This document shows, one piece after another, positions 39,123 through 62,511 of a stretch of DNA of 64,000 nucleotides. The stretch lies in assembly GCF_008520305.1 (NCBI RefSeq), contig NZ_ML703258.1, forward strand, positions 124,001 through 188,000. The letters run 5' to 3'. How positions within the stretch are numbered: the first letter of the stretch is position 1; every line of letters begins with the position of its first letter. The notes under the pieces were generated by a model. It made no database searches, was not told the DNA's origin, and saw nothing but the letters and a program-made list of their open reading frames with translations. Origin of the DNA: Mesorhizobium sp. SARCC-RB16n. GTDB taxonomy: Bacteria; Pseudomonadota; Alphaproteobacteria; Rhizobiales; Rhizobiaceae. A program made the position numbers and the translations under genes.

Positions 39123-39195
39123 ATCAGTTGAGATTTCCAAACTGCTATTTTTTGTGGACAAGTCATAAAATTTGCCGACACTAGATAACATCATC

Positions 39196-39810
39196 ATGGC
39201 CGAACGTCATATGAATTACCGCCAAAGCGCCCTGGGTCTCATACGAGACCGCGGGATTGCGCGCGCACGCGACTTCAAGGCAGCGGGCATCCCGCTCGTG
39301 TATCTGAAGCGCCTAGCTGACGCTGGGGATATCGTCCGTCTCGGACGCGGCCTCTATCAAGACCCTGAGCGAGTCGGTGAAGACACCGCTCACGATCTCG
39401 CAGAAGCCGCACGCCTGGTACCGTACGGCGTCGTCAGCCTTGTAAGTGCGCTTCGCCATCATGAGCTGACGACTCAGCTGCCGCACGCCGTATGGATGAC
39501 TATACCACATAAGGCGCGGACGCCGAATGCCCAGGGCCTGCGGCTCGAGATCGTTCGAGCGACCGGCGATGTCCTGACGGCGGGGGTCGAGCACATCCGG
39601 GTCGAAGGCGTCGATGTGCCGATCTATGGCGTCGCGAAAACAGTTGCCGATTGCTTCAAACATCGCCGCCACGTCGGCGAGGATGTCGCCATCGAAGCGC
39701 TCCGAGATGCTCTGCGGCAACAAAAGACCACGGCGAGTGAGCTCATGAAGTACGCAGGCATCGACAGGGTCACAGCCCGGATCGAGCCCTACATCAAGGC
39801 GATGCAATGA
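39196..39810 (+). CDS. abiEi: AbiEi-family antitoxin
   Basis: Antitoxin of a type IV AbiE system, about 204 residues. N-terminal winged helix (ALGLIRDRGIARARDFKAAG, LKRLADAGDIVRLGRGLY), then the AbiEi C-terminal domain (VVSLVSALRHHELTTQLPHA, TVADCFKHRRHVGEDVAIEA). AbiEi proteins repress their own operon through the winged helix and counteract the nucleotidyltransferase toxin. The start is uncertain (ATG 39196 or 39211, TTG 39172; none with a good ribosome site). The stop overlaps the ATG of abiEii by four bases, showing coupling. Confidence 0.88.
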   Translation: MAERHMNYRQSALGLIRDRGIARARDFKAAGIPLVYLKRLADAGDIVRLGRGLYQDPERVGEDTAHDLAEAARLVPYGVVSLVSALRHHELTTQLPHAVWMTIPHKARTPNAQGLRLEIVRATGDVLTAGVEHIRVEGVDVPIYGVAKTVADCFKHRRHVGEDVAIEALRDALRQQKTTASELMKYAGIDRVTARIEPYIKAMQ

Positions 39811-40730
39811 TGGCCAAGGTCCTCAAGAACCCCGCGGTGTCAATCAGGGAGCGCCTGCTTCAACACACCAGGCAACATGGTGATGTCTATCAGCGAATCC
39901 TGACGCGTTACGCGATCGAACGCCTGCTCTTCCGTCTTAGTCTGACGGATGCGGCCGAGCACTATATGCTCAAGGGTGCGATGCTGTTCGTAACCTGGCC
40001 TGAACACGTCTTCAGGCCAACGGGTGATCTCGATCTGCTCGGCCACGGCGACCCCAAACTCGGCGCAATCGCTGCACTCTTCACGCGCATCTGCCAGGTC
40101 GAAGCGCCCGATGACGGCATCATCTTCGATCCGTCCACTCTCACCGTCGAACCGGTGCGTGAAGGTGACAAGTACCAGGGTGTTCGCCTGAGCGTGAAGG
40201 GAGTGCTCGCCAGGGCAGTAATCCCCGTTCAGGTTGATATTGGCTTTGGCGATCATGTCTATCCACCGCCGCAGCGAAGGATGTTCCCCTCTCTTCTGCC
40301 GAACCTTCCGGCGGCGAACATTCTCATGTACCCGCCCGAAACTGTGATCGCAGAGAAATTCGAAGCGATGATCCGCTTCGGGGCAGCGAATGGGCGGATC
40401 AAGGACTTCTACGACATTTGGGTCACGCTCCGCACATTCGGCTTCGAACTGCCCGAGCTGGTAGAGGCCGTCGGCGGTACGCTCCGGCGCCGAGAGACTG
40501 CTATCCCGACTGAGATGCCTGTGGGTTTGACCGAGGCGTTCGCGACTATCGCCGCCGAGCGGGGTCTCTGGACTGGCTTTCTTCGTCGGAATCCGCCGAC
40601 CATTCAGCCGCCTTCTTTCCCAGAGCTTCAGATGGAATTGCGACGGTTTCTGGGCCCTGTGATCGCTGGTCTTGCCGTGCCAGAAGGGGCCAAGGGCCGA
40701 TGGGGCCCTGATGACGGGTCGTGGAGTTAG
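39807..40730 (+). CDS. abiEii: AbiEii-family nucleotidyltransferase toxin
   Basis: Toxin of the AbiE pair, 307 residues. The nucleotidyltransferase motif is present: LKGAMLFVTW then RPTGDLDLLG (metal-binding Asp pair), followed by IPVQVDIGFGD (third acidic residue), and the typical PPETVIAEKFEAMIRFG with NGRIKDFYDIW. Family members transfer nucleotides to tRNA or other targets and cause abortive infection. Translated from an ATG overlapping the abiEi stop. It is complete and looks functional. Confidence 0.92.
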   Translation: MMAKVLKNPAVSIRERLLQHTRQHGDVYQRILTRYAIERLLFRLSLTDAAEHYMLKGAMLFVTWPEHVFRPTGDLDLLGHGDPKLGAIAALFTRICQVEAPDDGIIFDPSTLTVEPVREGDKYQGVRLSVKGVLARAVIPVQVDIGFGDHVYPPPQRRMFPSLLPNLPAANILMYPPETVIAEKFEAMIRFGAANGRIKDFYDIWVTLRTFGFELPELVEAVGGTLRRRETAIPTEMPVGLTEAFATIAAERGLWTGFLRRNPPTIQPPSFPELQMELRRFLGPVIAGLAVPEGAKGRWGPDDGSWS

Positions 40731-40758: not shown

Positions 40759-41330
40759 TCAACGCGCATTGGCAATGGATTTCACTAGCGCTGCTGAGGC
40801 GGCAGCGATCGTACCGCTCTGGTTCGCGATCGCCGTGTTGAGCTGTCGAACGGGACGCTCGTCGACTATTTGATGGAGACTGACATTTCCGTCGCCTTGT
40901 CCCACTCCTACAGCGACGTCTGAGGCGACCGGAAGCCACATCTCCACGGCCGGATCGTTGAGGTCCGCGCGATCGTGCGCAGTCAGTTTCACGACCGGTC
41001 GGCTCCCGATGATGAAGCTCTTTTTTGGCTGCATAATGCGCAGCGCGCCGCTCGAGCACCCGCATCACCTCCGCGCTTGGCTCTCCGAGGGATGAATTCG
41101 AACGTTGCACAGTGTTCGTGCCTTGGCTTAGGTGTCGCCAGGGCTTCGATTTCATCAAAGCGGTGAGGCGCGGCCTCACGAAGCTCGTCGAGTATATCCT
41201 CGACCATCCGCAATTCATCGGCTTCGGTGAGGTTCGCGCGTTGGGTCTCCGGAGTCCGGCGCCACTGACTCAGAAAAAACATGTGTCAGAGGTGCTTCTG
41301 CTCGGGTGAGAGGATAGGGACCTGTCCCTC
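40759..41330 (-). pseudogene. DUF4238-like remnant, N-terminus removed at a repeat boundary
   Basis: Two pieces: FFLSQWRRTPETQRANLTEA and MVEDILDELREAAPHRFDEI, and in a second frame KSFIIGSRPVVKLTAHD, VEMWLPVASDVAVGVGQ and NTAIANQSGTIAAASAALVK to the stop. The ALQWxRTP...FIIGSxPVV...ExWLP order matches DUF4238 proteins as I know them. A frameshift lies near 41040. The upstream (N-terminal) half is missing exactly where the ~640-bp direct repeat starts (41331), so the repeat has replaced it. Confidence 0.55.
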
Positions 41331-41967
41331 CTGGCTACGCCGTTATCAATAGTCGCCGTTATAGTAAAGGTCATCGCAAGGTGCGATGTAAATTCGGCCG
41401 TAGCGATCCTGGTAGCGGCAGAGCTGATCCTTGCGACACTGCGCAGTGGTGGCGGAGCCGACGACTGCTCCGAGCAGCGCGCCGCCGGCCGCGCCGATGA
41501 CGGTGCTCTTCGTGTTCCCGCCAATGGCCTGGCCGACCAGCGCGCCACTGGCACCGCCGAGCAGAGCGGCCGTGGCTGCCCGCTGCTGTCCTTCCGTCTG
41601 CGTTTCGCAGCCTGCCAGGGCTGCCGTCATTAGGACGGCCAAAACCGCTTTCTTGAGTATCATCTAAGGAAACTCCTTGAGGCCCCGCGGGCCGTTGGAA
41701 CAATCCATCCGATGTAAACTGTCGGGATGTCCGTAACCTGACGGCAGGCAGAAGCTGGCCATATATTGCAAACTCTCATCGCTGGGGGCACGAGAAGCTA
41801 TGGGTAAAGAACCAAGCGTTCCGAAGGCCTCCGCATTCAAACCGGGAACCCGGGGGCGCGGTACGTACGCATGTCAACCGACCTGCCGACCTATCCTGTT
41901 GCGATGCTATCGCTGCATATGCCGACATGATGCTCTATGACATCATCGCCACGGCGCCTGGCTGACC
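41331..41967. repeat. Direct repeat A (about 640 bp), carries a lipoprotein gene
   Basis: Matches 46691-47336 in the same orientation with scattered substitutions and two small indels. It begins CTGGCTACGCCGTTATCAAT and ends just past GACATCATCGCCAC. It contains a whole glycine-zipper gene plus ~300 bases upstream. The two copies bracket a 4.7-kb segment with chorismate mutase, the tRNA-rtcB module and the IS481 element. Confidence 0.85.
41346..41663 (-). CDS. Glycine-zipper lipoprotein, copy A
   Basis: 105 residues. Signal peptide with lipobox (MTAALAGC), a glycine-zipper helix pair (LLGGASGALVGQAIGG and IGAAGGALLGAVVGSA), then a Cys-bearing C-terminus DQLCRYQDRYGRIYIAPC. Such small 17-kDa-antigen-like/Rcc01693-like lipoproteins sit in the outer membrane. 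Their role is unknown. AGGAAA precedes the ATG. Copy B lies at 46706-47023 and differs at roughly a dozen residues, some in the C-terminus (IAPC versus IARC). Confidence 0.85.
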   Translation of the reverse strand: MILKKAVLAVLMTAALAGCETQTEGQQRAATAALLGGASGALVGQAIGGNTKSTVIGAAGGALLGAVVGSATTAQCRKDQLCRYQDRYGRIYIAPCDDLYYNGDY

Positions 41968-42108: not shown

Positions 42109-42426
42109 ATGAAGGAAGATCTTAGGGTGGAAGTTCGCCTGGCAGAGCATCGGAACACAATCGACAATATCGACTCCGCGATCATCCACATGCTCGCTGA
42201 GCGATTTCGCTGCACGGAGGAGGTCGGCTTCCTCAAAGCCCAACATGGCTACTTGGCCCAAGATAGCACGCGTGAGGCCGCACAGACCAAGCGCTTGCGT
42301 GACCTCGCTCTGAGCGCGGGTCTTGAGCCAGAGCTGGCCGAAGCTTATCTCCGATTTGTCGTTGCCCATTCAGTCCGTCGACATGAGGCGATAGCAAGTC
42401 TGGTAGCGCATGGTGTGAAGCGGTGA
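42109..42426 (+). CDS. Chorismate mutase, AroQ class
   Basis: Small all-helical enzyme of 105 residues that converts chorismate to prephenate. First helix RLAEHRNTIDNIDSAIIHML with the N-terminal catalytic Arg, then AERFRCTEEVGFLKAQ with the second basic residue, and the C-terminal helix LAEAYLRFVVAHSVRRHEAI. The start at 42109 has AGGAG a few bases upstream. No signal peptide, so cytosolic. Stand-alone proteins of this type also belong to the PchB-like isochorismate-pyruvate lyase group. No aromatic-pathway genes are near, so this is an isolated cargo gene between the two direct repeats. Confidence 0.85.
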   Translation: MKEDLRVEVRLAEHRNTIDNIDSAIIHMLAERFRCTEEVGFLKAQHGYLAQDSTREAAQTKRLRDLALSAGLEPELAEAYLRFVVAHSVRRHEAIASLVAHGVKR

Positions 42427-42990
42427 CGTGTTGGACCGGCCTATTTGATGCTTGTTGCAACGGGATGCCTACGCAAGGACTCGCATAGAGCCCGTGAGTA
42501 CGACACGAGCATGGAAAGCACCCTGAGCAGCATTGTGAGAAGTACGACAATGTTGGACATCCGACATAGCTGTTTCGACGGACCCATCGTATTCAAGCCG
42601 TTTCTCCCTTGGCACGACTATTGCTGTGTGACTCGCAACGCGACCGACCGACAACGATCGCGCGAAGGAAGTCAGGATCGCAAGGGCTCTCTCCTAAGCG
42701 TGATCCGCAGGTTGAATCGGGCCTGCGCAATCGATCCGGCGCGAGCGTTTGAAGCTTGGGTCGCCTCGTAGCGAGAACCGAAATATGCCGGCGAGATCGG
42801 CGATGAAACGAAAACGATCAGCCAGGAGAACGGGCGTTCGAGAAGTTCGGAAATTCAAGCAGCCGACCGATTGCGGACCGGATCAAGCTAGAATCGGTAT
42901 TGGTGCCTTTATGACGTGCGGGCATGGGAGTTCTCCCACCCGCACCATGCCCATCCAAGCGGTTGTTGTCGCTATAGTGATGAGATTGAG
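42427..42990. other. Intergenic region, no gene recognised
   Basis: About 560 bases between chorismate mutase and the small frameshifted reading frame. One plus-strand frame runs 42445-42771 without family resemblance or ribosome site. A GC-rich inverted repeat near 42918-42956 (GGGCATGG with CCATGCCC) could be a terminator. Confidence 0.4.
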
Positions 42991-43297
42991 ATGAGCGACG
43001 ATACAAAGCACCTGCTTGCGGAAGGGCTAGACTTTTGCGTCCGGGCCAGAGCGATGGATGGAATAGATCGTCGCAAAGCGGCCTTGGGCGCTTCGACAGT
43101 ATCGGAAGAGTGGCAAGCAAGCGGCCAGTTCGATCTCACCGCCAAGCGCCACCGTGCCTCTGTGGGTTCAAGACCAATACGAGAAGGACTTGGCTGACTG
43201 GGAGCGGCGGGCGCGGGGCTCATCTGATGAGCTTGGCCTAACGCCGCTTCGGCTCAAACGTCTCAATCCGACACCGAACGCCATCCGCTTCAATTAG
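42991..43297 (+). pseudogene. Small protein of unknown family upstream of the tRNA-rtcB module, frameshifted
   Basis: Reads MSDDTKHLLAEGLDFCVRAR, then ALGASTVSEEWQASGQFDLT. After a shift near 43155 it continues LWVQDQYEKDLADWERRARG and LTPLRLKRLNPTPNAIRFN to a TAG. Together this would be a ~103-residue soluble, charged protein; both parts have the codon use of a real gene. I do not recognise the family. It ends about 60 bases before the tRNA-Pro-like gene on the same strand, so it may be the first member of an operon with the tRNAs and rtcB. Confidence 0.5.
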
Positions 43298-43355
43298 ATA
43301 GGAGATCGGCATGAACCGCGAAGCGCATATCGACCGACCGCGACCCACTCCCTTT

Positions 43356-43431
43356 CAGGGTGTGGCGCAGTTGGTAGCGTGCCGCACTTGGAATGCGGAA
43401 GTCGCCGATTCGAGTCCGGCCGCCCTGACCA
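43356..43431 (+). tRNA. tRNA-Pro(UGG)-like gene
   Basis: A 76-base cloverleaf with encoded CCA. Acceptor stem CAGGGTG/CGCCCTG (7 pairs, one G-U), U8, D-arm GCGC/GCGT with A14, G15, GG18-19 and A21, anticodon arm CCGCA/TGCGG (5 pairs) around loop CTTGGAA, giving anticodon UGG; T-arm with loop TTCGAGT. C1-G72 and A73 are bacterial tRNA-Pro identity elements. Odd points: A53-C61 breaks the otherwise universal G53-C61 pair, and base 37 is A where tRNA-Pro normally has G. It lies in the same orientation as rtcB, 132 bases before its start codon. Confidence 0.75.
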
Positions 43432-43465
43432 CCTCCCGAACGAGACGACGGCAATAGCCTTTCGC

Positions 43466-43541
43466 GCCGACGTAGCTCGGTGGTCGAGCAGCATCCTTGT
43501 AAGCTGAAGGCCGGAGGTTCGACTCCGCCCCGCTGGCACCA
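43466..43541 (+). tRNA. tRNA-Thr(UGU)-like gene, irregular
   Basis: tRNA-like sequence with encoded CCA. Acceptor GCCGACG/CGCTGGC (one A-C mismatch, one G-U), D-stem GCTC/GAGC, anticodon loop CTTGTAA (UGU), T-loop TTCGACT. Deviations: A14 and A21 are replaced by G and C, the anticodon stem GCATC/GCTGA has two mismatches (an alternative CAGC/GCTG stem would give a 10-base loop), the T-stem has an A-G mismatch, and one extra C (43530) sits between T-stem and acceptor. Either a decaying tRNA or a specialised tRNA-like RNA. It ends 22 bases before the rtcB ATG. Confidence 0.55.
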
Positions 43542-43563
43542 ATCCCCTGAAAGAGGCGTGAAC

Positions 43564-44889
43564 ATGCGGCAGTCCCATCCATTGGAATCGCGCGCTCGTG
43601 AGTTGTGCGCAATGGCCGGTATCGATCCAGACAGCCGCGTCGCCGACGGGCGCGGCATGCCCGCCTGGTGCACGTACCGTGATGCCGCTCGCCAAGAGCA
43701 AGTGCTTAAGGAAGCCAGCGAAGTCGAGTTGCCGCCACAGGCAACCGAATATCAGAACTCTCCGTTGAGGGTTTTTGGAGAGCACGACGAAGGCACGCTT
43801 GCGCAGATGCGCAACTGCATGGCGGTCGGCAATGTCGTGGCCGGCACGATCTGCGCAGATGGTCACCTTGGCTATGCGCAGCCGGTCGGCGGCGTGATCG
43901 CCTATGAAGGCCAGATCAGTATTTCCGGCGTCGGCTTCGATATCGGCTGCGGCAATATGGCAATCAGGCTGGATACCCCGTTCGCTGCCATCCAGGATCG
44001 CGTTCCGGCGATCATCAGGGACGTGGCCCGCATTATCTCCTTCGGGATCGGTCGCACCAACGATGAGCGTGTGGAGCATGAATTGCTGGACGACGCCGAG
44101 GCATGGCGCATGTCGGATCGTGAAGATTATCGGAGCAAGGCCGCCACTCAGCTCGGCACGGTCGGATCGGGCAACCATTATGTTGACCTGATGCGCGATG
44201 AAGAGGGCTTTGTCTGGGTCGGCGTGCACTTCGGCTCGCGCGGACTCGGCCACTCTAGCGCGACGAAGTACCTGAAGGCTGCCGGCGGCAAGGATGGGAT
44301 GAACGGTCCGCCTGCCGTGATCAATGAGGATAGCGAGATCGGGCAGCGCTACATCGCCGCAATGGAACTGGCCGGCAGGTATGCCTACGCGGGCCGGGAA
44401 TGGGTCTGTGAGCGCGTCCGCAAGATCATTGGCGGCAATGTGACCGACGGCGTGCACAACCACCACAACTACGCTTGGCGTGAGCGGCACGGCGACCGCG
44501 ATCTGTGGGTGGTCCGCAAGGGCGCGACGCCGGCTTTCCCCGGCCAGCGCGGCTTCGTCGGCGGCTCTATGGGTGACGATGCCGTGATCATCGAAGGCGT
44601 CGATGGCGACGAGGCGCGCTCCTCTCTCTATTCGACTGTGCACGGCGCCGGCCGTTTGTTCGGACGCAAGGAGGCCAAGCGCCGGTTCCAGCGGGATGAG
44701 ATGGAGCGTTGGCTACAAGAACGCGGCGTCGTGCTGATTGGAGCCGATCTTGACGAAAGCCCGATGGCCTATCGCCGGCTGCCGGAAGTGCTCGCCCATC
44801 ATTCCGCCTCGATCAAGGTGCTCCACACGCTGCGGCCGGTCGCCGTAGCGATGGCAGGGGCCAATGAGTTCGATCCATTCAAGGACTAG
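43564..44889 (+). CDS. rtcB: RtcB-family RNA ligase (3'-phosphate/5'-OH)
   Basis: Joins RNA ends carrying 2',3'-cyclic or 3'-phosphate and 5'-OH, using Mn and GTP. 441 residues; the family is ~400-480. Motifs in order: ADGHLGYAQPVGGVIAYEG, the Mn-binding Cys in GFDIGCGNMAIRL, GTVGSGNHYVDLM (His), VGVHFGSRGLGHSSATKY (His), HNHHNYAWRER, VRKGATPAFPGQRGFVGGSM, and the guanylylated His in STVHGAGRLFGRKEAKRR. All ligands are present, so it should be active. The ATG at 43564 has AAGAGG upstream. No rtcA, archease or RtcR is near. It directly follows two tRNA-like genes, and its stop codon lies in an IS481 target site. Confidence 0.95.
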   Translation: MRQSHPLESRARELCAMAGIDPDSRVADGRGMPAWCTYRDAARQEQVLKEASEVELPPQATEYQNSPLRVFGEHDEGTLAQMRNCMAVGNVVAGTICADGHLGYAQPVGGVIAYEGQISISGVGFDIGCGNMAIRLDTPFAAIQDRVPAIIRDVARIISFGIGRTNDERVEHELLDDAEAWRMSDREDYRSKAATQLGTVGSGNHYVDLMRDEEGFVWVGVHFGSRGLGHSSATKYLKAAGGKDGMNGPPAVINEDSEIGQRYIAAMELAGRYAYAGREWVCERVRKIIGGNVTDGVHNHHNYAWRERHGDRDLWVVRKGATPAFPGQRGFVGGSMGDDAVIIEGVDGDEARSSLYSTVHGAGRLFGRKEAKRRFQRDEMERWLQERGVVLIGADLDESPMAYRRLPEVLAHHSASIKVLHTLRPVAVAMAGANEFDPFKD

Positions 44890-44890
44890 C

Positions 44891-45926
44891 TGTGAGCTTT
44901 CGGGAGGTTGTCCATTCGGACCGGACCGAGGAGACTGGAGTTACCAGGCTTCAGCACTCGCCGGAGGGTCCGAATGAACATTCACAAGAATGCCCGTCTA
45001 ACGCCGCTGCGTCGAGAGGAGATGGCGCTGTCGGTGATAGAGGGCGGTTTTTCCAAGGCCCATGCGGCGCGCGTCTATGGCGTGTCGGCCAAGATCGTGG
45101 CGCGCTGGATCGAGCGCTATAAGGCCGAAGGTCGGGCCGGCACGGTCGACCGTTCCTCGCGGCCCGCCCATATGCCACAGGCCACCACTGCGTCGATCGC
45201 CGAACGCATCGTGGCGCTGCGGCGGCAACGTTGGACCGGCAAACACATCGCCCATGAAGTCGGCGTCTCGCCCGCTACCGTCAGTCGGGTTCTCAAGCGT
45301 GCCGGACTGTCGCGGTTGAGGGATATCGAACCGGCCGAACCGGTTCGCCGCTACGAGCGCGAGCATCCCGGCGAGATGATCCACATCGACATCAAGAAGC
45401 TCGGCCGTTTCGAGCGCATCGGTCATCGCATTACCGGCAAACGTACCGGCAATGCCAGCTCCCGCGGCAGCAGTTGGGAGTTCGTCCATGTCTGCATCGA
45501 CGACGCCTCCCGTATCGCCTTCTCGCAAATATTGCCCGACGAGCGCAAGGAAAGCGCCATCGCCTTCCTCAAGGCGGCGGTGGCCTACTACGCCAGCCTC
45601 GGCGTCACGATAGCCCGCGTCATGAGCGACAACGGCTCCTGCTACAGATCGAAGGCCTTCGCCAAGACCTGCCGCGATCTCGGCCTCAAGCACATCACGA
45701 CAAGGCCCTATACGCCCAAGACCAATGGCAAGGCCGAGCGCTTCATCCAGACGGCGCTGCGCGAATGGGCCTATGCCATCGCCTATCCGACTTCAGATCA
45801 CCGCGCCGCAGAGTTGCCGGTCTGGCTGCATCGCTACAATTGGCACCGTCCCCACGGAAGCCTAAAGTCCAAAACACCTATCAGTCGCCTCGCTCTAACC
45901 GAGGACAACCTATTGAGGCTCCACAA
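44891..45926 (+). mobile_element. IS481-family insertion sequence
   Basis: Ends share TGTG(G)AGC...AGGTTGTCC: left end 44891 (TGTGAGCTTTCGGGAGGTTG), right end 45926 read on the other strand (TTGTGGAGC then AGGTTGTCC). CTAG precedes the left end (44886-44889) and follows the right end (45927-45930), suggesting a 4-5-bp target duplication CTAG(C). The left CTAG holds the rtcB stop codon; the right CTAG supplies the TAG stop of the transposase. Confidence 0.65.
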
Positions 45927-45930
45927 CTAG
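44974..45930 (+). CDS. IS481-family transposase (DDE)
   Basis: 318 residues, intact. N-terminal helix-turn-helix repeats: ALSVIEGGFSKAHAARVYGV and IAHEVGVSPATVSRVLKRAG. The rve catalytic core has MIHIDIKKLGRF (first Asp), ARVMSDNGSCYRS (second Asp) and KTNGKAERFIQTALREWAY (Glu), closing with HRYNWHRPHGSL. The start at 44974 is chosen for GGAGGG 5 bases upstream; a longer in-frame extension exists. The last codon is followed by TAG that comes from the CTAG target sequence. Confidence 0.93.
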   Translation: MNIHKNARLTPLRREEMALSVIEGGFSKAHAARVYGVSAKIVARWIERYKAEGRAGTVDRSSRPAHMPQATTASIAERIVALRRQRWTGKHIAHEVGVSPATVSRVLKRAGLSRLRDIEPAEPVRRYEREHPGEMIHIDIKKLGRFERIGHRITGKRTGNASSRGSSWEFVHVCIDDASRIAFSQILPDERKESAIAFLKAAVAYYASLGVTIARVMSDNGSCYRSKAFAKTCRDLGLKHITTRPYTPKTNGKAERFIQTALREWAYAIAYPTSDHRAAELPVWLHRYNWHRPHGSLKSKTPISRLALTEDNLLRLHN

Positions 45931-46452: not shown

Positions 46453-46690
46453 GCTGTTGATTGTGCCGAACAAGCTTTCTTGCTGGCGCGTACCGCCCAT
46501 CGTTGCAGATGATGTGCTGTCTTGGCAGCGTGAAATGCCGCCTTTGCGATCGCTGCACGTCGTGTTGGAGGCAGGACATGGCTGGGCCAGAATTGGCGCT
46601 AAGCAAATCCCGCCGGATATCCAGTCAACTGTCTTCAAGAGTGCCGTTGGTCCGCCACAGGTGTGGCGGATTACCATCCGATCGAGCGCC

Positions 46691-47336
46691 CTGGCTACGC
46701 CGTTATCAATAGTTGCCGCTATAGTATCGGGCATCGCAACGTGCGATGTAAATTCGGCCGTAGCGATCCTGGTAGCGGCAGAACTGATCCTCGCGACGCT
46801 GCGGAGTGGTGGCGGAGCCGACGACTGCTCCGAGCAGCGCGCCGCCGGCCGCGCCGATGACGGTGCTCTTCGTGTTGCCGCCAATGGCCTGGCCGGCCAG
46901 CGCGCCACCGGCACCGCCGAGCAGAGCGCCCGTGGTTGCCCGCTGCTGTCCTTCCGTCTGCGTTTCGCAGCCTGCCAGGGCTGCCGTCATCAGGACGGCC
47001 AAAACCGCTTTCTTGAGAATCATCTAAGGAAACTCCTTTAGGCCGCGCGGGCCGTTGGAACAATCCATCCGATATAAACTGTCGGGATGTCCGTAACCTG
47101 ACGGCAGGCAGAAGCTGGCCATATATTGCAGACTGACATCGCTGGGGGCTGGGGGCACGAGAAGCTATGGGTAAAGAACCGTTCCGAAGGCCTCCGCACT
47201 TAAACCGGCCCGGGGGCGCGGTACGTACGCCTGTCAACCGACCTGCCGACCTATTCTATTGCGAACCAGAAAGATGCCATCGCTGCATATCCCGACATGA
47301 TGCGCTATGACATCGTCGCCACCCCGTCTGACCGAC
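46691..47336. repeat. Direct repeat B (about 640 bp), carries a lipoprotein gene
   Basis: Second copy of the segment at 41331-41967, same orientation. It has small differences, for example an extra GGGGGCT repeat near 47145 and an insertion near 47265 (AACCAGAAA). The non-coding part 47024-47336 holds nothing else. Confidence 0.85.
46706..47023 (-). CDS. Glycine-zipper lipoprotein, copy B
   Basis: 105-residue paralogue of 41346-41663: lipobox MTAALAGC, zipper helices LLGGAGGALAGQAIGG and IGAAGGALLGAVVGSA, C-terminus DQFCRYQDRYGRIYIARC. Its zipper is more regular than that of copy A (GGAGGALAG versus GGASGALVG). Same upstream AGGAAA ribosome site. Both copies keep full reading frames although they have diverged, so both are probably under selection or the duplication is recent. 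Confidence 0.85.
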   Translation of the reverse strand: MILKKAVLAVLMTAALAGCETQTEGQQRATTGALLGGAGGALAGQAIGGNTKSTVIGAAGGALLGAVVGSATTPQRREDQFCRYQDRYGRIYIARCDARYYSGNY

Positions 47337-49281: not shown

Positions 49282-52200
49282 CTATTCGAGTTCGTGGATG
49301 GTAGTCCGTGGCACTACTGCCTTAGCGATTTCGCATAGATGCTTGTGATGCGTTAGATAGATCACCTGCCCCATGCCCGCCATTTCGCCGAAAAGCCTGA
49401 ACACTTCCTCGGATCGGATATGGTCGAACGTCTCCATGACGTCGTCCGCAACAAATGGCACCGACTGTCGGAATTGTGCGAATTCGTAGTATCCAGCGAG
49501 TCTCAGGGCCAGATAGAGCTGAAAGCGTGCGCCTTTTGACAGCGCATCGGCGACTTTGGATTGGCCGTCGCGCTGCATTGCGATCAGAACCTCGCCACCT
49601 TTTACAGGCTGGGTTGTGAGGCCCGAATACTGACCTCGCGTTATTAGCTTGAACGCGTCCGAAGCACGCGCCATCATTCCTGAACGGTGGCGCTCACGGT
49701 ATGCGCGCAAAGCATTTCCTGCTGACATGATGCCGAGCTTCAACTCAATATAGCGAACCGCGCTATCTTCGATTTCCAGCAGGATGGTTCGACGTTCGGC
49801 TTCGAGCCGAGCGACGGCGCTGTCGCCTCCAATCTCATCAATCTTGTCTGCCGCACGCGTTCGTCGGATGAGCTGCTGTTGGAGAGCGCCGTCGAGCTGC
49901 TGGAGCCTCTGCTCGCCTTGTCCCTTTTCGATCACCAGGCCGTCGAAGTCGATCTCGTCAAGGACCGAGCGGGCATGTTCAAACTTCTCCAATGAAAGTT
50001 CCGCCGCCACGCGATCCTCTAGCTCGGCTACGTTGGTGCGCAGCCGATCCCTCTCCCGCAGTAACTCGTCGCGCTGAGCCACGTCGGTCAAGGTTTCGAC
50101 GCCGAATGCGATCAGCACCTCATTCTTTCGGTGCTTATGGATCGAAGTCTCATTGTCGAGGACACTGCGCTCGCCCTTTAAGCGTTCGAGATCGGCCAAA
50201 AGGCCTGCCTTCGTGTCACGGGCCCTTTCAGCGCGATCAAGGCGGTCGCCGAGGCGAACTGCCAGTTGCTCCGCCTCTCCGTCCTTCATTGCCTCCGCGA
50301 CATCTGCCGCAATAGCGCTGCCTTCACTGAGGAAATCGGCTCTGTCATCTTCCATTTTGTCGATGCGCAGTTGGAGGGCGTCTCGCTCTTGCACGCTTTT
50401 GGCAAGATTACCCAACTGTTCGAGCACTGTGCTTAAGGCGGAAGCGGATACGCCACTCTCGAGCCAAGTTCCCTTGAGCGTGTCGGCGATCGCGGCGAGC
50501 CACTCGTCCTCGCGCCGCTCGGCCATGGCGAGAGCACGACGTCTGACAGTAAGATCCTCCTCTCTGCCAGTGACGGTTCTTAGTGCTTCAGCGTATTCTG
50601 CGTCTAACTTGCGCTGCCGATCCAGAAACAATTCCGCGAGGGCCATAACGGCTTCCAGCGTGTCATCCGGCGTCGACGTTATTCCGACGCTCGTCAACGC
50701 CCTAATCAGTTCCAGTCGGATCTGCTCGCCTGCTTCGGCAGCCCGCTCCGCCTTCTTGCGAGAAAGCTCGATCTGCCCCCATGCAGCGAGTGCATCAGCG
50801 CGTACCTCAATTCGATCTTGCAAGCGATCTACCAGGCGCTCTAGCGACGGCTCGATCGCGTCTCCTAGCAACTGACCGCTGGCCTGACGGACCTCTGCCA
50901 ATTTGGCATCCCGGTCGAGGCCAAGTTGTGCGTGCTGTTGACGCAAGCGAGACAGATCCGCCAAAGCTTCGGCAAGCGCCCTGGTGGTTGCGCGCATCTC
51001 TGCCAAATCCGACGCGTTCGCCAAGCGACCTGTGCCGACACCATCGTCTAGCGCTAGTGCTATGGCAAAGTCATCAGCTGTTTCGCTGGTCAGCGCCGCC
51101 TTATGGGTCGCCCAAGCTGTGTCACGGGCGCGCCGACTTGCTACCGCAGCTTCGTCGTCTGCCACATCGATGGACGCCCGAAATGCATCCAGGCGTGCCG
51201 AGTGTCTCATGGAGTTGCTCTCACATTCCCCAAGGCGTTCGGCGAGCACCGAGCTGGCTCTGGCTAAATCTGTTGCCGCCATCTTCCAGGAAGCAATCTG
51301 CCCCGCGCTCGGAATTGCAATGCTCATGAGCGCGCTCGCATCGCCGGCCCACGGTCGCAGCTGAGCCCGCAACTCCTCCAAGCGGATTTTCCCCGTATCT
51401 TCCTCCTCGCGGGCCGCCGCAATTTCCGCCAGATGGCTGCTGGCGCGGGCTTTCGACAACGCTGAACCGAGCTTGGCTCTGACGGATTCGGGCACAGCTC
51501 TTTCTTCGCCGACTCGCTGTCGAGCCGATTGGAGCGCATCGACCGCAGCCGCAGTTTCATTATGAGCAGCACTTACCGCGGTGGCGATGCCAGATCGCTG
51601 CTCAATCATTGTTCGCAAGATGCCCACCGTCGCTGCGGGCAAAAGTAGCTGCGCAGGGTTCTGTTCAGAAGTCCGCCCCAACGCGCTTAGGCAAGTGGCG
51701 ACGGCGTTGTCGAGGATTTGCAGCTGGACCTTGCGGGTGGGCAAATCTAAGCCTGCCGACGAATAGCGAACTTTGCTCCCTGCCAAGGTTCGGATGCGCT
51801 CGGAGACCCCTAAGATCAGCTCGTCCACGTTAGCGGACGCAATGCTTGCCACTAGACGTTCAACTTCGCCGACATTGCCGGCCAGACGCGTTCTCAGGCT
51901 CGCATCCTCATCGATCAGCTCGGCGATCGAGCCCGTCCAAGTGCGTGTTGGCGAAGCGGTTTTCGGTAACGCGTCTAATTGGGCGAGCTTCCGCCGAATA
52001 TCAGCCAGCATCGGTCGCGCGCGCTCGAGCCGCGCAATCGCCTCGAGCCGCGCCGCCAATACCGCCCGTTCGCTGATTATGCCATCGTACTGTTGTGACG
52101 CGTCTCGACGCTCCGCCTCCAGCCCTTCGTAAGTCGAAGCCAGAGTGTCGATATCATCCTTCCGCGACTTCAGCTCAGCCAGGCGCTTTTTTAGCAGCGC

Positions 52201-52752
52201 GATGTCCGTGCCTTGGGCCTGCTTGCGATGCAGCGCGTCGGCCTCTGCTTCCAAGGCATTGAGCGTATCGCTTGCATGGCCAAGGCCCGCGCTGGCAGTG
52301 AACAACAGCTTGCCGAGATCACCGCGTGACTCCAGGATCGCCTTTCCACCAGCTTCCAGCGTCTCGTCATCCAACGAAAACATTGTCGTGTAGGCGTCGC
52401 GAGATAGGCCCGCCAGGTGTGCCGTGATCGCCATCTCGCTGACCGGCTTGCCAGTCGCGTCAAGGAGCGAATTGTTCCGCTGTTTAGTGCGCGTGAAAGC
52501 GTGTTCCACGCCCGCCAACTCGAGCACACCGCCTAGCCGCATGGCGCTGTATTCGTGAATGAAGTTGTATTTGCTGCGCTCCTCAATGCCGAACAAGAGG
52601 TCGAGAAAGCCAGAAAGAGCGGTCGATTTGCCGGCCTCATTGAGGCCGAACACGATATGCAGATCCGGCCCGGAGGTGGGCTTCGGTCCGAAGTCGACTG
52701 TCCGATCGGTGAACTTCCCATACCGAACAAGATCAAGACGTCGCAATCTCAT
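49282..52752 (-). CDS. YhaN/SbcC-like SMC-type ATPase
   Basis: 1156-residue Rad50-like ATPase. N-terminal LDLVRYGKFTDRTVDFG leads to the Walker A HIVFGLNEAGKSTALSGFL; long coiled coils fill the middle (for example LLKKRLAELKSRKDDIDTL). The C-terminal ABC part has LSKGARFQLYLALRLAGYYE (signature) and VPFVADDVMETFDHIR (Walker B, with D-D-x-x-E), closing with QVIYLTHHKHLCEIA. No zinc-hook CxxC was found in the coil. The ATG overlaps the stop of the nuclease gene (ATGA), so the two proteins are made together, like YhaO-YhaN or SbcD-SbcC. Probable partner in DNA-end processing. Confidence 0.9.
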   Translation of the reverse strand: MRLRRLDLVRYGKFTDRTVDFGPKPTSGPDLHIVFGLNEAGKSTALSGFLDLLFGIEERSKYNFIHEYSAMRLGGVLELAGVEHAFTRTKQRNNSLLDATGKPVSEMAITAHLAGLSRDAYTTMFSLDDETLEAGGKAILESRGDLGKLLFTASAGLGHASDTLNALEAEADALHRKQAQGTDIALLKKRLAELKSRKDDIDTLASTYEGLEAERRDASQQYDGIISERAVLAARLEAIARLERARPMLADIRRKLAQLDALPKTASPTRTWTGSIAELIDEDASLRTRLAGNVGEVERLVASIASANVDELILGVSERIRTLAGSKVRYSSAGLDLPTRKVQLQILDNAVATCLSALGRTSEQNPAQLLLPAATVGILRTMIEQRSGIATAVSAAHNETAAAVDALQSARQRVGEERAVPESVRAKLGSALSKARASSHLAEIAAAREEEDTGKIRLEELRAQLRPWAGDASALMSIAIPSAGQIASWKMAATDLARASSVLAERLGECESNSMRHSARLDAFRASIDVADDEAAVASRRARDTAWATHKAALTSETADDFAIALALDDGVGTGRLANASDLAEMRATTRALAEALADLSRLRQQHAQLGLDRDAKLAEVRQASGQLLGDAIEPSLERLVDRLQDRIEVRADALAAWGQIELSRKKAERAAEAGEQIRLELIRALTSVGITSTPDDTLEAVMALAELFLDRQRKLDAEYAEALRTVTGREEDLTVRRRALAMAERREDEWLAAIADTLKGTWLESGVSASALSTVLEQLGNLAKSVQERDALQLRIDKMEDDRADFLSEGSAIAADVAEAMKDGEAEQLAVRLGDRLDRAERARDTKAGLLADLERLKGERSVLDNETSIHKHRKNEVLIAFGVETLTDVAQRDELLRERDRLRTNVAELEDRVAAELSLEKFEHARSVLDEIDFDGLVIEKGQGEQRLQQLDGALQQQLIRRTRAADKIDEIGGDSAVARLEAERRTILLEIEDSAVRYIELKLGIMSAGNALRAYRERHRSGMMARASDAFKLITRGQYSGLTTQPVKGGEVLIAMQRDGQSKVADALSKGARFQLYLALRLAGYYEFAQFRQSVPFVADDVMETFDHIRSEEVFRLFGEMAGMGQVIYLTHHKHLCEIAKAVVPRTTIHELE

Positions 52753-54011
52753 GAAGAGGCACCAGCCTTGAGACGCGCGGTGACCTGATCAATGCCCCTG
52801 GCGAGGGCTCTATCAAGGAAAAGGTCGAGGTCAGCTTCGCTCTTGCCAGCAAAGTCGCGGCCTTCCGCCGGAAGTTCGGCAACCGTCTTCTGAATGAAAG
52901 CTCTCGCCTCGGCGCGGAACGCCTCCGACCTGGCGTCGCTGCGCATCGACGCGGCGAGTTCATAAATCGGATCAGCTGCATCCTCGACCGTTTCGGCCAT
53001 AGGCGAAACGACGCCAAGATCGAGCTTTTCGATCCACGTGCCCCCCAGTTGCCCGGCCACCTGTTGAGCTTCGGCAAGGAGGAGGTCCCTGTCACGAATG
53101 AGTTGCCATGACAACGTTGACGCACCGGTCAAATTGACTCGAGCCAGAACGTGCCTCGATCGAACATTGGATCGCAGCTGTTCAAGTGCGACGCGGACGC
53201 GCGTGACAACCTCGGACCATTCAACTGTTTCCGTAAGATCGACGCTGAGCCGTTCGAATTGCGCGACGCTGGTCAGCCTCTCCTCGATCTCGATCGAACC
53301 GTCATCACCTATCGTCACAAGCGTTGCCGACTTCTCACCGGCCTCATTGATATCCCTGCCCTGCGGAATACCCGGCATCACGACAGTGGCGCGTGTCCCT
53401 GGATAGACTTGGCGGACATGGATGTGCCCGAGCGCCCAGTAGTCGAAACTATGACTGTGCAAGTCGGCCACGCTGCAGGGAGCGTACACGTCGTGACCGG
53501 GCGAGCCGGCTAGGCTGGTGTGCATGATACCGACATTGACCGCGCCTTCACGAGCTATTGGGTACTTCGGCAACAGGCTGTCTGGCGCTTTGGAATGGGT
53601 AAAACTCAGGCCATGAAACACGACATCCCGACCAACCGAGGTCTGCAATACCGATTGGGCGCGGCCGCCGAAAATGGTCACGCTATCCGGAAACACCAGC
53701 TGTTTAGAGATGCGCGAGAGGGCATCATGGTTGCCGCGGATCTTGAAGACTCTAATTCCTGCTTGGTGTAGCCGGCCGATCTGTGTCGCGACGAACCGGG
53801 CAGTCTTCATCGAAGTTTGATCGCCATCATAAAGGTCGCCAGCAATGACCAGCGCATCCACGCGTTCCTCGAGACACAAATCCACTATGGAAACGAAGGC
53901 TTGGCGGCTGGCATCACCCACGAGCTCCGCGAGCTCGAGATTTCGCAGCGCAAGCGACCGCAGCGGTGAATCCAGATGGATGTCGGCGGTGTGAACAAAT
54001 CGAAACGCCAT
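52749..54011 (-). CDS. Mre11/SbcD-type nuclease (YhaO-like)
   Basis: Metallophosphoesterase nuclease of 420 residues. Phosphodiesterase motifs in order: VHTADIHLDSPL (DxH), VIAGDLYDGDQ (GDxxD), IRGNHDALS (GNHD), VGIMHTSL, and LGHIHVRQ (GHxH). All metal ligands are present. The C-terminal ~130 residues are the cap/ATPase-binding part. GGAGG lies 4 bases before the ATG. It is the middle gene of the operon, 82 bases after the helicase-nuclease gene and overlapping the YhaN-like ATPase gene by 4 bases. Confidence 0.92.
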   Translation of the reverse strand: MAFRFVHTADIHLDSPLRSLALRNLELAELVGDASRQAFVSIVDLCLEERVDALVIAGDLYDGDQTSMKTARFVATQIGRLHQAGIRVFKIRGNHDALSRISKQLVFPDSVTIFGGRAQSVLQTSVGRDVVFHGLSFTHSKAPDSLLPKYPIAREGAVNVGIMHTSLAGSPGHDVYAPCSVADLHSHSFDYWALGHIHVRQVYPGTRATVVMPGIPQGRDINEAGEKSATLVTIGDDGSIEIEERLTSVAQFERLSVDLTETVEWSEVVTRVRVALEQLRSNVRSRHVLARVNLTGASTLSWQLIRDRDLLLAEAQQVAGQLGGTWIEKLDLGVVSPMAETVEDAADPIYELAASMRSDARSEAFRAEARAFIQKTVAELPAEGRDFAGKSEADLDLFLDRALARGIDQVTARLKAGASS

Positions 54012-54093
54012 TCAGCCTCCAACCAAGGACAGACCTCGTCCCAGGTTCGTCAGATCTAGCGAGGGCAGCCGCCCCCGCCTTGTCGGTGACGTC

Positions 54094-57000
54094 TCACTGA
54101 CCGTATGCGCCGTCGATCAGCAATCCGTCTTGGTTTCGCAACAATCCGTTCGCGACGGCACCGGCAACCGCCGTCGAAATCAATTGCCTCAATTGAGCGC
54201 TTGTGGCTTTGAAGCCCAACATCCTCGAAACGCTCGTTGCGATTTCGTCCTCCGTCGCGCCGAGATTGGATCTCACCACGTCGATTGCTCCTTCAGCAAC
54301 TTCCTCCGACGAGATCATTTCAGGCTTGCGCAATCCAGGGGACATCACACCACTACGGTCTCGCAGCCGGATAGAGGCGCCAGGCTTGAAGCAGAAGGCG
54401 CCTCGCCTTGAAACTGCGCCCCGGCTTTCAGCGATTGTGAGGCCACGTTCGATTGCGCTTTGGATCCTCCCACCGGCCCGCTGCAAACCCCATGCATCAC
54501 GGATACGCGACACTACCTCGTCGACATGGATCGGTGCCTCCGCAGCCACAACTTGCTCGATTAGCCCCGCTAAGATCGCGGTGGGCGTCTCATGAAGCTC
54601 AACTTGCGCAGGTCTCTGAACTATGGCTTCCGCGTAGGCTCGATCAGGTGCAGCGGCTCCGTTCGTCGTTTCCAAGCCAATTTCAGTGACGTTACCGCGG
54701 TCAACCGTCACGACCTGGACGGCTGCGGCTCGGGTTCTCTGGTTTCCCAACTCCGCACGTTCAGCGAGGTCTCTCGTTGCGGCCTCGATCGCAGCCACAG
54801 TCCGCTCAAGCTGTTCTCGTGGACGCTGGAACCAGTCAGCGCTCCAGATGCGATGAATGATCCAGCCATGGTCTTCGAGCACAGCCTGGCGCAGCCGATC
54901 CCGATCCCTGGCGGAGCGCGAGGAATGATACTCAGCACCGTCGCATTCGATGCCCAGCAGATAGCGCCCTGGCCGCTCCGGATCAGCGACGGCCAGATCG
55001 ATGAAGAAGCCTGCGATGCCCACCTGTGCATGGACCTGAAAGCCTCGCTCAATCAATGCATTGGCTACCTGTTCTTCAAAGATTGAATCCATCTCCCGGG
55101 TCGTCGTCTGCGCGAGCGAGATGCGTCCAGTCCTCGCGTAGTGCAAAAAGAGCTTGAAGGCGAAAACCCCCTTCCCCTTTCCGCGCTCGAGGTCGATATC
55201 CTCATCTGTTATCGACGCGTAAACCTCACAGGCACGCTTGGCCCGGCTTATGAGGACGTTGAGGCGACGCTCGCCGCCTTCCGAACCGAGTGGGCCGAAG
55301 CGCATGGCCATGTAGCCCTGGGCGTTCTTGGCATACCCCACCGAGATCATGATCACGTCCCGCTCGTCGCCTTGAACGTTCTCCAGGTTCTTGACGAAAA
55401 ACGGCTCACTCGGATGGGCGTGGAAGAAGTCTTCCGTATCGGGATTCAGCCGCCGCAAGGCTTCGAGCTCATCTTGGATGGCACGACGCTGGCTAACGGA
55501 AAAAGTGGCAACGCCCAGAGTCTCTTGCGGATTCGACTTCGCGTGACGGATGATCGCTTCCGCTACGGCCCGCGCCTCGATGGGGTTCGTTCCGGTACCA
55601 CCTGAATCGAACACTCCGTCAGGCACATGATGGAACCGCAGCCCCATGCCGGCCTCCTGGGTATAAGGGCTCGGCACGATGAACAGCCGGTTCTCGTAGA
55701 ACTGGCTGTTCGATACGGCGATCAGCGATTGATGTCGGCTGCGGTAGTGCCAGCGAAGCATGCGCTGCGGCAAGCCACGGGCCGTGAAAAGCCCGAGGAT
55801 ACTTTCGATGTCAGCGACCTGCGCACCCTCGCCGTCGTCATCTTCAGATTGCGAGCCGGTCATCTTCGCGAAGAATGTCGTCGGGGGCAGTTGGCGTTCA
55901 TCGCCAACGACGACCACCTGGTTCGCCCTGGCAATTGCGCCGAGCGCATCCACCGGCTGAATCTGAGACGCTTCGTCCATAACCAGGAGGTCGAACGACA
56001 TACGACCGGGCGACAAGAACTGCGCCACCGAAAGTGGGCTCATCATGAACACTGGCTTGAGCGCTTGGACAGCAGGCCCTGCCCTCAGCATCAACTGCCG
56101 AATAGGCATATGGCCTCGTCTGCGCGCCATCTCAGATCGAAGCAATCCGACTGGCCCCGCTCCGCCATCTCTTGAAGGGATCTTGCGATGATGCGCGGTC
56201 ACGACCTCGATGGCGCTAGCCTTGATCCTTTGTCGGTCCAAATCAGCAAAGTCGCGAACAGCTCTGGAATGGAGCTCACCGTCAAACCTCCCGAGCTCTG
56301 GCTCCATATTGGCCATCGCCGTCAGCATTCTCTCGTAATAGGCCATGTCGAAGACCGATCGCGCCGATGCGGTCGGAACTTGGCCGTTGGCCAGGCCGTC
56401 TATCAACTGCCCTAGTCCGGCCTTTCGAGCATTGTCCGATCGTTCTTCGTAGGCGACCCATTTCGAGAGCTGTTCCTGATGCCCGACCCAGCCCTCCAAT
56501 CGAGCAATCAACTCGGCAATCATGATATCCGAGAAATCGCCTACTCCGAAAAGAGACGAAGCATCTGCTTTCAAATCCTCCGCAAGCGCCTTCAATTGCA
56601 GTGCCGCGGCCTGCGTCGCTTCTCGAGTAGAACGAGCTGAGTTCGCGATCTCGACTCTGTCAGGCAAACGGGCGACTAGATGTCGGAGTGCGCTATTGCT
56701 TTTCAACCAAAGCTCGGCCTGCGTAAGCGCGGCCCAGTTGGATCCTCGCCCGAGCCATGACGAACCGAATGCGGAAATGCCAAGACCTTGAGCGGCATCG
56801 ATCTCTTGAGCGAGCTTTTGTAACGCGCCCAGTCGCCGGACGAGCTCCACCCGGTCGGATAACTGATCAGGCACGCTGGCCAGAACGTCTCGAGACGCTT
56901 CGTCCGCTTGTGCCACGGAACGCGCCTTCACTTCCATCAGCTTCAGTGAAGCCCTTTCGGCGGAAGCCACATCACCCAGCATGGACGGCGCAAGGTGGCC

Positions 57001-59661: not shown

Positions 59662-60132
59662 TTATGCCCCCTCGCCCAAAGCCGACCTTAGATCCTGCGC
59701 AACGGCAGCCGCAACAAAAAAAGCTATCCGGATTTCGATAATACTGTTGGCGCGGACGGGTCCGCAGCATTGTGAAATGGGATACGTCGGTTACTTGATT
59801 TGAGCCATGCCTCAACTCTGTGGCCAGAAGGCCGCGCCGCCCTGAGGCGACGTGCGCCGCTGAAGCCAGGCAGATCTTGTCACAGCGATCGCGATCTCAC
59901 CCGCCATTTTCGGAATGTCGGCTCCTGGGAACGACCCAAAATGGCCACGAAGACCGATACCAAGCGCAAAGCTGCCATGTCATAGAAGACAAATGCGTTT
60001 GGCGAGTGGCTTGACCGGCGAACCGCCTCTTTAACGGTCGACAGAGGCATGGACGCGACCACGACGCGTCATGCGGTCCAAGTGTAGTTGCGCCGCGGGA
60101 CAAACATGCGGATTCAGCCGCTTGGATGGCTT
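59662..60132. other. Intergenic region, no gene recognised
   Basis: About 470 bases upstream of the helicase operon. It presumably contains that operon's promoter. Small open frames on both strands have no ribosome site or family resemblance. Confidence 0.4.
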
Positions 60133-60922
60133 TCATGGCGCCTTCTTCCCGACTTCGTTCTTACGCACTTTTCCGTCTTCGTAGGAAACCACAGCTCCCG
60201 TTGGCGGCCCCAGCACTTCATATCGGAGAGGTTTGCCGAGCACGCTCGGGACCCAATCCAGGAGTTTCATAAGATTGGTAGCGTAGGAACACTTCCGCTC
60301 GGCCTGGGCCTCGCCGATATAGATTGCGAAAACACCTGGAAGCTGTGCAATCGTGGTAAGTGGTGCGCCTGAGCAGCAAGCGCCTCCAATTTCACTGACT
60401 TCGTAGAAATTATCGCCTACATATATGCTGAGGTTGGGATTAGGCGAATAGTGAAGTTTTCTGCGAACATATCCACGAGAGTACACTGGAGAGGGATTGA
60501 ACGGCAAACCGCCTTCCAACGGACCGTGGTGTACGACCTCCTTTGCAATAACATCAGGATAAGCCCACATATTGTACTCAGAGCCTGGAAATGGCTCCTG
60601 GGGCGCAAATATAATGGGCGAGGTCACTTTCTCAGGAAGGTCGACCTTAATGATGCCGACATCTTCCGTAGGGTGAATTTCCACTTCGGTGATAGCACAA
60701 GCGTCCCATCCTTCCGGGTCTGGGTAAAAACACTCTGCCTTTCGTCCCCCCGATCTGCTGAATGACATGCGCAGCCGTGAGCGCGTAGCCCTTACTTCCA
60801 ATCAGAAAACAGGTACCGTTTAGCTCGGCTGTTTTATAGTCAGGTTCGCCCTCTGGCGTGACATTTAGCGTGCAGACTGGCAAGACAAATTGTCTTGTAT
60901 TGTTACTTGCTTGGAACATCAT
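60133..60922 (-). pseudogene. Trypsin-like serine protease, one frameshift
   Basis: Protein of ~260 residues in two frames. Frame 1 starts MMFQASNNTRQFVLPVCT with GAGGAG upstream and has the catalytic His (GYALTAAHVIQQIGG). Near 60735 the sense continues in frame 2: CFYPDPEGWDACAITEVEIH, with the Asp in TEDVGIIKVDLP and the Ser in IGGACCSGAPL. No signal peptide, so cytosolic, like the trypsin-like proteases found in bacterial defence and effector systems. A single base change separates it from function. It lies upstream of the helicase-nuclease operon on the same strand, 470 bases away. Confidence 0.75.
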
Positions 60923-61353
60923 GTTATACTCCTCGACGCGACGAGAGGTTCGCGATTCTCGATGGATGGTCGGACGTGACGGACTCAAGTTTAGCGTTGT
61001 CGTATTGATGTCCGCTTACCAGAAGGCACATAATGTTGCTCTACGACCGATATGCTTAAGGGTTTCGGGTGCCGTCAGGCGTACGAAAGTCTCCTCATGC
61101 AGGAACCCGCGGGCCGCAACGATTGCCTATGGGGATTTGTGCCTCGGGGTGTGCCAGCGCCTATCGCGAACTTCCGCATAGGATGCGGTGGGGATGTCGT
61201 GGGAGCCGCTTCCAGGCCAGATCGCAGAGCCTGTAGCGTTGATTCCAGCGGCATTGGTATGCGTGACGACCGGCGCCACGGCAACGTGCACATAACATCC
61301 CGTTGACCGGCGCCGGCGTGGCGCGGTCGTACGAGCAACTTGGCCATGCCGGG

Positions 61354-62508: not shown

Positions 62509-62511
62509 CGT

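What the first reader, a model, noticed from the sequence alone, without database searches (positions are those of the whole stretch)
42991..44889. RtcB RNA ligase gene in one unit with two tRNA-like genes
Two tRNA-like sequences with encoded CCA (43356-43431, anticodon UGG; 43466-43541, anticodon UGU) lie directly before rtcB on the same strand. Only 34 bases separate the tRNAs, and 22 bases separate the second tRNA from the rtcB start codon, with the rtcB ribosome site inside that gap. Maturation at the second CCA would create the rtcB mRNA 5' end. RtcB repairs RNAs cut to 2',3'-cyclic phosphate/5'-OH ends, the kind left by anticodon nucleases (established for the family). A tRNA-ligase operon could supply spare or decoy tRNAs together with the repair enzyme against tRNA-cutting toxins. 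An additional small reading frame (42991-43297) may be a third component. rtcA, archease and RtcR are absent, so this is not the classical rtc operon.
Basis: partly seen in the sequence, partly recalled or inferred. Interest (0 to 1): 0.87.

Follow-up and report, generated by a model that had tools for sequence, protein, structure and literature searches.

The report
Phage-derived tRNA and RNA-ligase unit
A bacterial chromosome carries a small gene unit of phage origin that pairs an unusual proline tRNA with the RNA-repair enzyme RtcB; related phages keep the same pairing, which suggests a kit for keeping translation running when tRNAs are cut.

Summary
The window's RtcB groups with phage contigs (91% identity, 100* support); phage contig L001 has the same order: leader, tRNA-Pro, further tRNAs, rtcB. 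In 99 non-redundant viral loci of this RtcB, 12 have a tRNA within 100 nt (rotation null mean 2.6); the nearest is Pro(UGG) in 10 of 12. Of 22 distinct tRNA-Pro genes within 650 nt of such an rtcB, 20 carry A37 instead of the usual G37 (14 of 14 UGG; both exceptions are in one isolate phage). In a wider viral sample 65 of 81 UGG genes carry G37. Eight viral loci and the window share a leader with three Pro codons that is predicted to block the tRNA acceptor stem. Best reading: a captured phage tRNA-replacement and repair unit, probably against tRNA-cutting nucleases. No sign of an rtcBA or Ro60/Y-RNA operon among the window proteins scanned. Expression, function and a nuclease target are unproven, and the second tRNA looks decayed.

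The parts
43311..43355 (+). 5' leader; ATG after AGGAGA, reads MNREAHIDRPRPTPF and stays open through tRNA-Pro to a stop codon at 43455-43457; three Pro codons in the last six codons of the leader
   Evidence: homologous to the leader of phage contig L001 (blastn 76% over 43307-43435)
43345..43365 (+). predicted hairpin between leader and tRNA 5' strand that competes with the tRNA acceptor stem
   Evidence: RNAfold, (acceptor-stem probability 0.99 alone, 0.00 with the leader)
43356..43431 (+). tRNA-Pro(UGG), encoded CCA; A37 at 43392 instead of G37; one non-standard pair, in the T stem
43466..43541 (+). degenerate tRNA-Thr-like sequence (anticodon UGU), encoded CCA, four non-standard pairs
   Evidence: (33.9 bits); phage contig L010 has an ARAGORN tRNA-Thr(UGU) directly after its tRNA-Pro(UGG)
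43542..43563 (+). 22-nt gap with ribosome-site-like GAAAGAGG; L001 has GAAAGAG at the same place
43564..44889 (+). rtcB, 441 aa; H360 aligns with His404 of P. horikoshii RtcB; dN about 0.06 and dS about 1.1-1.2 against L001 and L002
42991..43297 (+). two frame-broken ORF pieces (42991-43197; another frame ending at 43297), not a demonstrated component
44974..45930 (+). IS481-like transposase just 3' of rtcB (the longest ORF in this frame starts at 44908)

Best explanation
A phage-derived translation-rescue unit stranded or kept in a bacterial chromosome. RtcB (inferred from its family) re-seals RNAs cut to 2',3'-cyclic-phosphate/5'-OH ends, while the linked tRNA-Pro supplies a replacement whose anticodon loop differs from the usual one at position 37 and may therefore escape a nuclease or bypass the need for m1G37. 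Shown here: recurrent linkage, the Pro isotype, A37, phage ancestry of RtcB, purifying selection on rtcB, and a leader predicted to hold tRNA-Pro in a non-tRNA fold. Inferred: co-transcription, ligase activity, nuclease resistance, counter-defence use. In this chromosome the second tRNA looks decayed, so the copy may be only partly functional.
For: RtcB tree (quick, LG+G4): window with L001 and L002 at 100*, and within a nine-row set at 95* made of seven viral contigs, one Hyphomicrobiales MAG and the window. L001 and L002 carry phage genes: antiterminator and tail; terminase small subunit and endonuclease VII. 12 of 99 viral loci have an ARAGORN tRNA within 100 nt of rtcB, null mean 2.6, max 8 in 2000 rotations; at 50 nt 9 against 1.9, at 200 nt 12 against 3.8. 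Nearest is Pro(UGG) in 10 of 12; 3 of the other 97 tRNAs of these loci are Pro(UGG) (Fisher 4e-10, not corrected for shared descent). A37 in 20 of 22 distinct tRNA-Pro within 650 nt, 14 of 14 UGG and 6 of 8 CGG, against 16 of 81 UGG in the wider viral sample (Fisher for UGG 7e-9); the two tRNA-Pro read from a Bradyrhizobium genome have G37 (30 of its 51 tRNA matches fetched). 0 of 16 isolate phages with more distant RtcBs have a tRNA within 100 nt. Phage tRNAs with altered anticodon loops are proposed to evade host nucleases (PMC10264068, passages).
Against: 87 of 99 viral loci of this subfamily have no ARAGORN tRNA within 100 nt. Both exceptions to A37 are in isolate phage Tunturi_5 (Pro(CGG) with G37 at 47 nt, and a poorly paired one with T37 at 130 nt), whose RtcB is 53% identical to the window's, no further off than some loci that do have A37. 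The 650-nt limit was set after seeing the data. A37 tRNA-Pro also occurs without RtcB: 1 of 16 A37 records and 1 of 48 G37 records carry RtcB. RtcB activity, tRNA charging and expression were not measured. Lys480 of P. horikoshii RtcB aligns with Met here, and Met stands there in all 14 aligned rows. In the one study I read of a nuclease that uses nt 36-37, changing the second G to A shifted the cut rather than abolishing it (PMC6459853, passages), and that family leaves ends RtcB does not join (recalled).
Confidence: 0.6

Rival explanations
1. Codon supplementation: phages carry tRNA-Pro and RtcB in one RNA-metabolism module for ordinary reasons, and adjacency and A37 reflect shared descent of a phage tRNA-Pro lineage.
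For: tRNA-Pro genes with one D-arm type were found in 10 viral stretches; of the four new ones three lie in records where RtcB was not found. A37 without RtcB exists. Phage Lacusarx has rtcB in its tRNA region (PMC5648845, passages).
Against: Acceptor and anticodon stems differ widely while A37 is constant in 20 of 22; the tRNA lies before or after rtcB, and once among the viral loci on the other strand, so the pairing may have formed more than once. No tRNA tree was built to test this.
Confidence: 0.22
2. Inert relic: the window copy is a leftover of a phage or island now decaying beside an IS element.
For: Second tRNA has four non-standard pairs, the small ORF is broken, an IS481-like transposase lies next to rtcB, direct-repeat pieces flank the segment.
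Against: rtcB is full length with dN/dS about 0.05, the same as between the two phages; tRNA-Pro has a single non-standard pair.
Confidence: 0.25
3. A form of the Ro60/Y-RNA/RtcB repair module, the tRNA-like sequences being Y-RNA-like.
For: In Bradyrhizobium L080 tRNA-like copies are followed by a TROVE gene and then by a relative of this rtcB.
Against: No TROVE match among 24 window proteins scanned; the window tRNA-Pro scores as an ordinary tRNA, whereas Rfam reported no tRNA in L080 and four other Bradyrhizobium loci.
Confidence: 0.05

Closest known systems
Phage tRNA repair and replacement (T4 tRNA ligase against PrrC; phage tRNAs with altered anticodon loops; PMC10264068, passages)
   Same: Phage genes restore the tRNA pool after anticodon cleavage, by repair or by altered tRNAs
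   Different: Here RtcB, a different ligase family, sits in one compact unit with an A37 tRNA-Pro; resistance is untested
Sphingobium phage Lacusarx tRNA region (PMC5648845, passages)
   Same: rtcB lies within a tRNA-rich phage region
   Different: Its RtcB is about 30% identical, and ARAGORN finds no tRNA in the 1.4 kb before and 1.5 kb after it that were fetched
Salmonella rsr-yrlBA-rtcBA operon (PMC7790460, passages)
   Same: RtcB beside tRNA-like RNA, linked to tRNA damage
   Different: No TROVE protein or RtcA among the window proteins scanned; tRNA-Pro here scores as an ordinary tRNA
Anabaena trn operon and rtcB under TrcR (PMC10272220, passages)
   Same: Extra tRNAs and rtcB are under one repressor and induced under translational stress
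   Different: 26-tRNA array on a megaplasmid; rtcB is a separate chromosomal gene

Membership tests
RtcB ligase family (PF01139) | Family profile match and the guanylated His | tested here: met
   PF01139 E 1e-64; H360 aligns with His404 of P. horikoshii RtcB (role recalled)
RtcB ligase family (PF01139) | C-terminal Lys480, P. horikoshii numbering (role recalled) | tested here: not met
   Aligns with Met430; Met in all 14 rows of A2
RtcB ligase family (PF01139) | Joins 2',3'-cyclic-phosphate and 5'-OH RNA ends | not testable with these tools
   needs purified enzyme
Classical rtcBA operon | rtcA adjacent to rtcB | tested here: not met
   No RtcA match among 24 window proteins scanned, the larger neighbours included
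Classical rtcBA operon | RtcR activator encoded divergently | not tested
   not sought by name
Ro60/Y-RNA/RtcB module | TROVE-domain protein beside rtcB | tested here: not met
   None among the same 24; present in Bradyrhizobium L080
Phage tRNA plus RNA-ligase counter-defence | Phage ancestry and linkage of ligase with tRNA | tested here: met
Phage tRNA plus RNA-ligase counter-defence | Protects against an anticodon nuclease | not testable with these tools
   no nuclease identified
Leader-peptide attenuation | Cognate codons in a translated leader and a mutually exclusive RNA fold | tested here: inconclusive
   Three Pro codons in each of nine leaders; in the last seven codons 68 of 191 codon differences are synonymous, against 13 of 194 and 7 of 197 in the other frames; acceptor stem lost in 9 of 9 against 30 of 107 controls. 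But pairing to the tRNA could explain part of the codon pattern, covariation could not be judged, and a clear ribosome site is seen only in the window

The most novel reading that the evidence does not exclude
The leader is a proline-decoding switch for a tRNA gene. When charged tRNA-Pro is plentiful, ribosomes run through leader and tRNA, or the leader hairpin forms, and tRNA-Pro cannot fold. When tRNA-Pro is cut or uncharged, ribosomes stall at the leader Pro codons, free the tRNA 5' strand, and release an A37 tRNA-Pro together with RtcB. That would be leader-peptide control of a tRNA gene inside a phage repair unit.
Probability: 0.15. Interest if true: 0.9.

Novelty: new variant of a known kind. 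Interest (0 to 1): 0.68.

Why it matters
It points to one isoacceptor family, tRNA-Pro, and one base, position 37, as something that phages with this RtcB protect or replace. That makes the old question of why phages carry tRNAs testable at a single locus, and predicts a nuclease or a modification-dependent defence acting on tRNA-Pro in the hosts of these phages, mostly Alphaproteobacteria to judge from the bacterial relatives.

Tried and rejected
Third gene at 42991-43297: rejected as a single frame; no Pfam or PHROG match for either piece, no viral relative for the one piece searched. ARAGORN with a lowered threshold: useless, 4240 hits against 197. Y-RNA reading: disfavoured (see rivals). 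Sigma-70-like promoter and terminator scan of 42400-45000: none found. Plasmid carriage: one short DNA match; 122 plasmid records with RtcB matches, all under 60% identity. A37 as a predictor of RtcB: not supported, 1 of 16 against 1 of 48. Loss of G37 in other isotypes: weak; Leu 4 of 5 A37 within 4.5 kb of rtcB against 19 of 41 in the viral sample, and Arg(CCG) is A37 in the Bradyrhizobium genome too. The leader pattern gave 0 matches, but as typed it fits neither the window nor L001, so it says nothing. Covariation of the leader hairpin: not judged; several pairing columns do not vary and the window shows a mismatch, not a compensating change. The hand-made tRNA pair check used wrong offsets and is not used; non-standard pairs are taken.

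Full report
What is there. The tandem of tRNA-Pro(UGG), a tRNA-Thr-like sequence (UGU) and rtcB is real and at the stated coordinates. The small ORF is not one frame: its two halves lie in different frames, have no Pfam or PHROG match, and the first half has no relative in viral contigs (the second half was not searched there).

Where it comes from. RtcB relatives were fetched from viral contigs (60 loci; 80 loci, overlapping) and from bacterial genomes (best 80 of 344). On a quick IQ-TREE of 141 rows the window groups with viral contigs L001 and L002 (100*) inside a nine-row set (95*) of seven viral contigs, one Hyphomicrobiales MAG and the window; the tool warns of long branches elsewhere in that tree. 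L001 has a NusG-like antiterminator before, and tail genes after, the unit; L002 has terminase small subunit and endonuclease VII genes. Blastn joins the window's leader plus tRNA-Pro (43307-43435) to the same part of L001 at 76%. rtcB differs from both phages mainly at synonymous sites, as they do from each other. The organism of the window was not established.

The linkage. Of 99 viral loci with distinct rtcB sequences, 28 have an ARAGORN tRNA in the fetched stretch and 12 have one within 100 nt of rtcB, against a mean of 2.6 (max 8) in 2000 rotations. Ten of the 12 nearest tRNAs are Pro(UGG); L001 has Gln nearest but Pro(UGG) in the same block; L203 has Thr(UGU). The other 87 have none so near. 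In L006 and L012 the tRNA begins directly after the stop codon, and in L020 the rtcB stop codon lies in the tRNA acceptor stem. In five loci with tRNA arrays (L009, L024, L027, L033, L164) the tRNA nearest rtcB is Pro(CGG), 230-489 nt away. Sixteen isolate phages with more distant RtcBs, picked by me from a spread listing, show no tRNA within 100 nt. Of three closer isolate-phage relatives, Tunturi_5 has Pro(CGG) 47 nt after rtcB and the other two show no tRNA in the fetched stretch.

Bacterial relatives. L079 and L089 carry 25 and 24 ARAGORN tRNAs around rtcB. By my count, 26 of the 80 genome loci have a tRNA-like match at E 0.01 or better some 1.5-1.9 kb before rtcB, often in tandem; Rfam at its own threshold reports none in the five Bradyrhizobium loci given to it. 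In the one such locus whose genes were scanned, L080, a TROVE gene lies between them and rtcB. Four Bradyrhizobium loci have a tRNA-Cys 23-24 nt after the rtcB stop codon; it has one match in each of those four genomes.

Position 37. Of 22 distinct tRNA-Pro genes within 650 nt of this rtcB, 20 have A37, window included: 14 of 14 UGG and 6 of 8 CGG. The two exceptions are Tunturi_5's CGG genes (G37 at 47 nt; T37 in a poorly paired one at 130 nt). The 650-nt limit was chosen after looking: L079 at 878 nt is A37, L016 at 782 nt is G37, and the more distant ones in L034, L222 and L233 are G37. m1G37 matters for tRNA-Pro (PMC8643618, passages), and nt 36-37 can steer a tRNA-Pro-cutting nuclease (PMC6459853, passages). 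The step from A37 to resistance in these phages is my inference.

The leader. A tRNA-Pro D-arm pattern found 10 viral stretches. In eight of them, and in the window, the stretch before tRNA-Pro has an in-frame ATG or GTG at 45-51 nt, three Pro codons in the last seven codons, and a frame that stays open through the tRNA; in L024, L033 and L164 the frame is open further upstream too. L392 and L394 lack it, as do L016, L025, L079, L089, L188, L195 and L199, whose tRNA-Pro lies elsewhere in its unit. In the last seven codons 36% of codon differences are synonymous in this frame against 7% and 4% in the others. The leader abolishes the predicted acceptor stem in 9 of 9 against 30 of 107 control tRNAs; the loci are not independent. 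Complementarity to the tRNA could by itself produce the CC-rich codons, so selection on the peptide is not proven. RtcB is present in the record of L395 but was not found in that of L396.

Mechanism and verdict. RtcB repair of cut tRNA plus an altered replacement tRNA is the reading that best joins these facts; codon supplementation and, for this chromosome, decay remain live. Nine literature searches (open-access PMC papers only) listed phages with tRNAs and RtcB, but I saw no description of an A37 tRNA-Pro/RtcB unit; only listings and the cited passages were seen, no paper was read whole, and one relevant review is not held.

Noticed in passing
window 41330-41904 and 46690-47264: Direct-repeat pieces (32-300 nt, 91-100% identical) spread over about 575 bp on each side, each side with a glycine-zipper lipoprotein gene, flank the 4.8-kb segment that holds the rtcB unit; possible duplication or integration by homology.
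   Followed up: partly
window 39172-40730: AbiEi/AbiEii pair (PADLOC E 2e-74 and 5e-103) 2.6 kb before the tRNA genes; relatives of AbiEii of the MenT kind act on tRNA (recalled).
   Followed up: partly
window 49282-63417: AAA_27/metallophosphoesterase pair (SbcCD-like), a DUF4011/MTES_1575/DUF3320 helicase-nuclease-like protein of about 1855 aa, an IS91-type transposase and a tyrosine integrase: looks like a mobile, defence-rich stretch.
   Followed up: no
L079 5823-9944 and L089 7257-12546: Bacterial arrays of 25 and 24 tRNAs with rtcB, L079 with an HNH endonuclease gene inside the array.
   Followed up: partly
L067, L095, L107, L130 (23-24 nt after rtcB) and L066 (about 100 nt): tRNA-Cys(GCA) just 3' of rtcB in several Bradyrhizobium; one match of its kind in each of the four genomes checked, L066 not checked.
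   Followed up: partly
L013 6348-6424, L139 11442-11518: tRNA-Pro(UGG) with A37 on the strand opposite to rtcB: directly after it in viral contig L013, and 94 nt after it, behind a tRNA-His, in a related Acetobacteraceae MAG.
   Followed up: no
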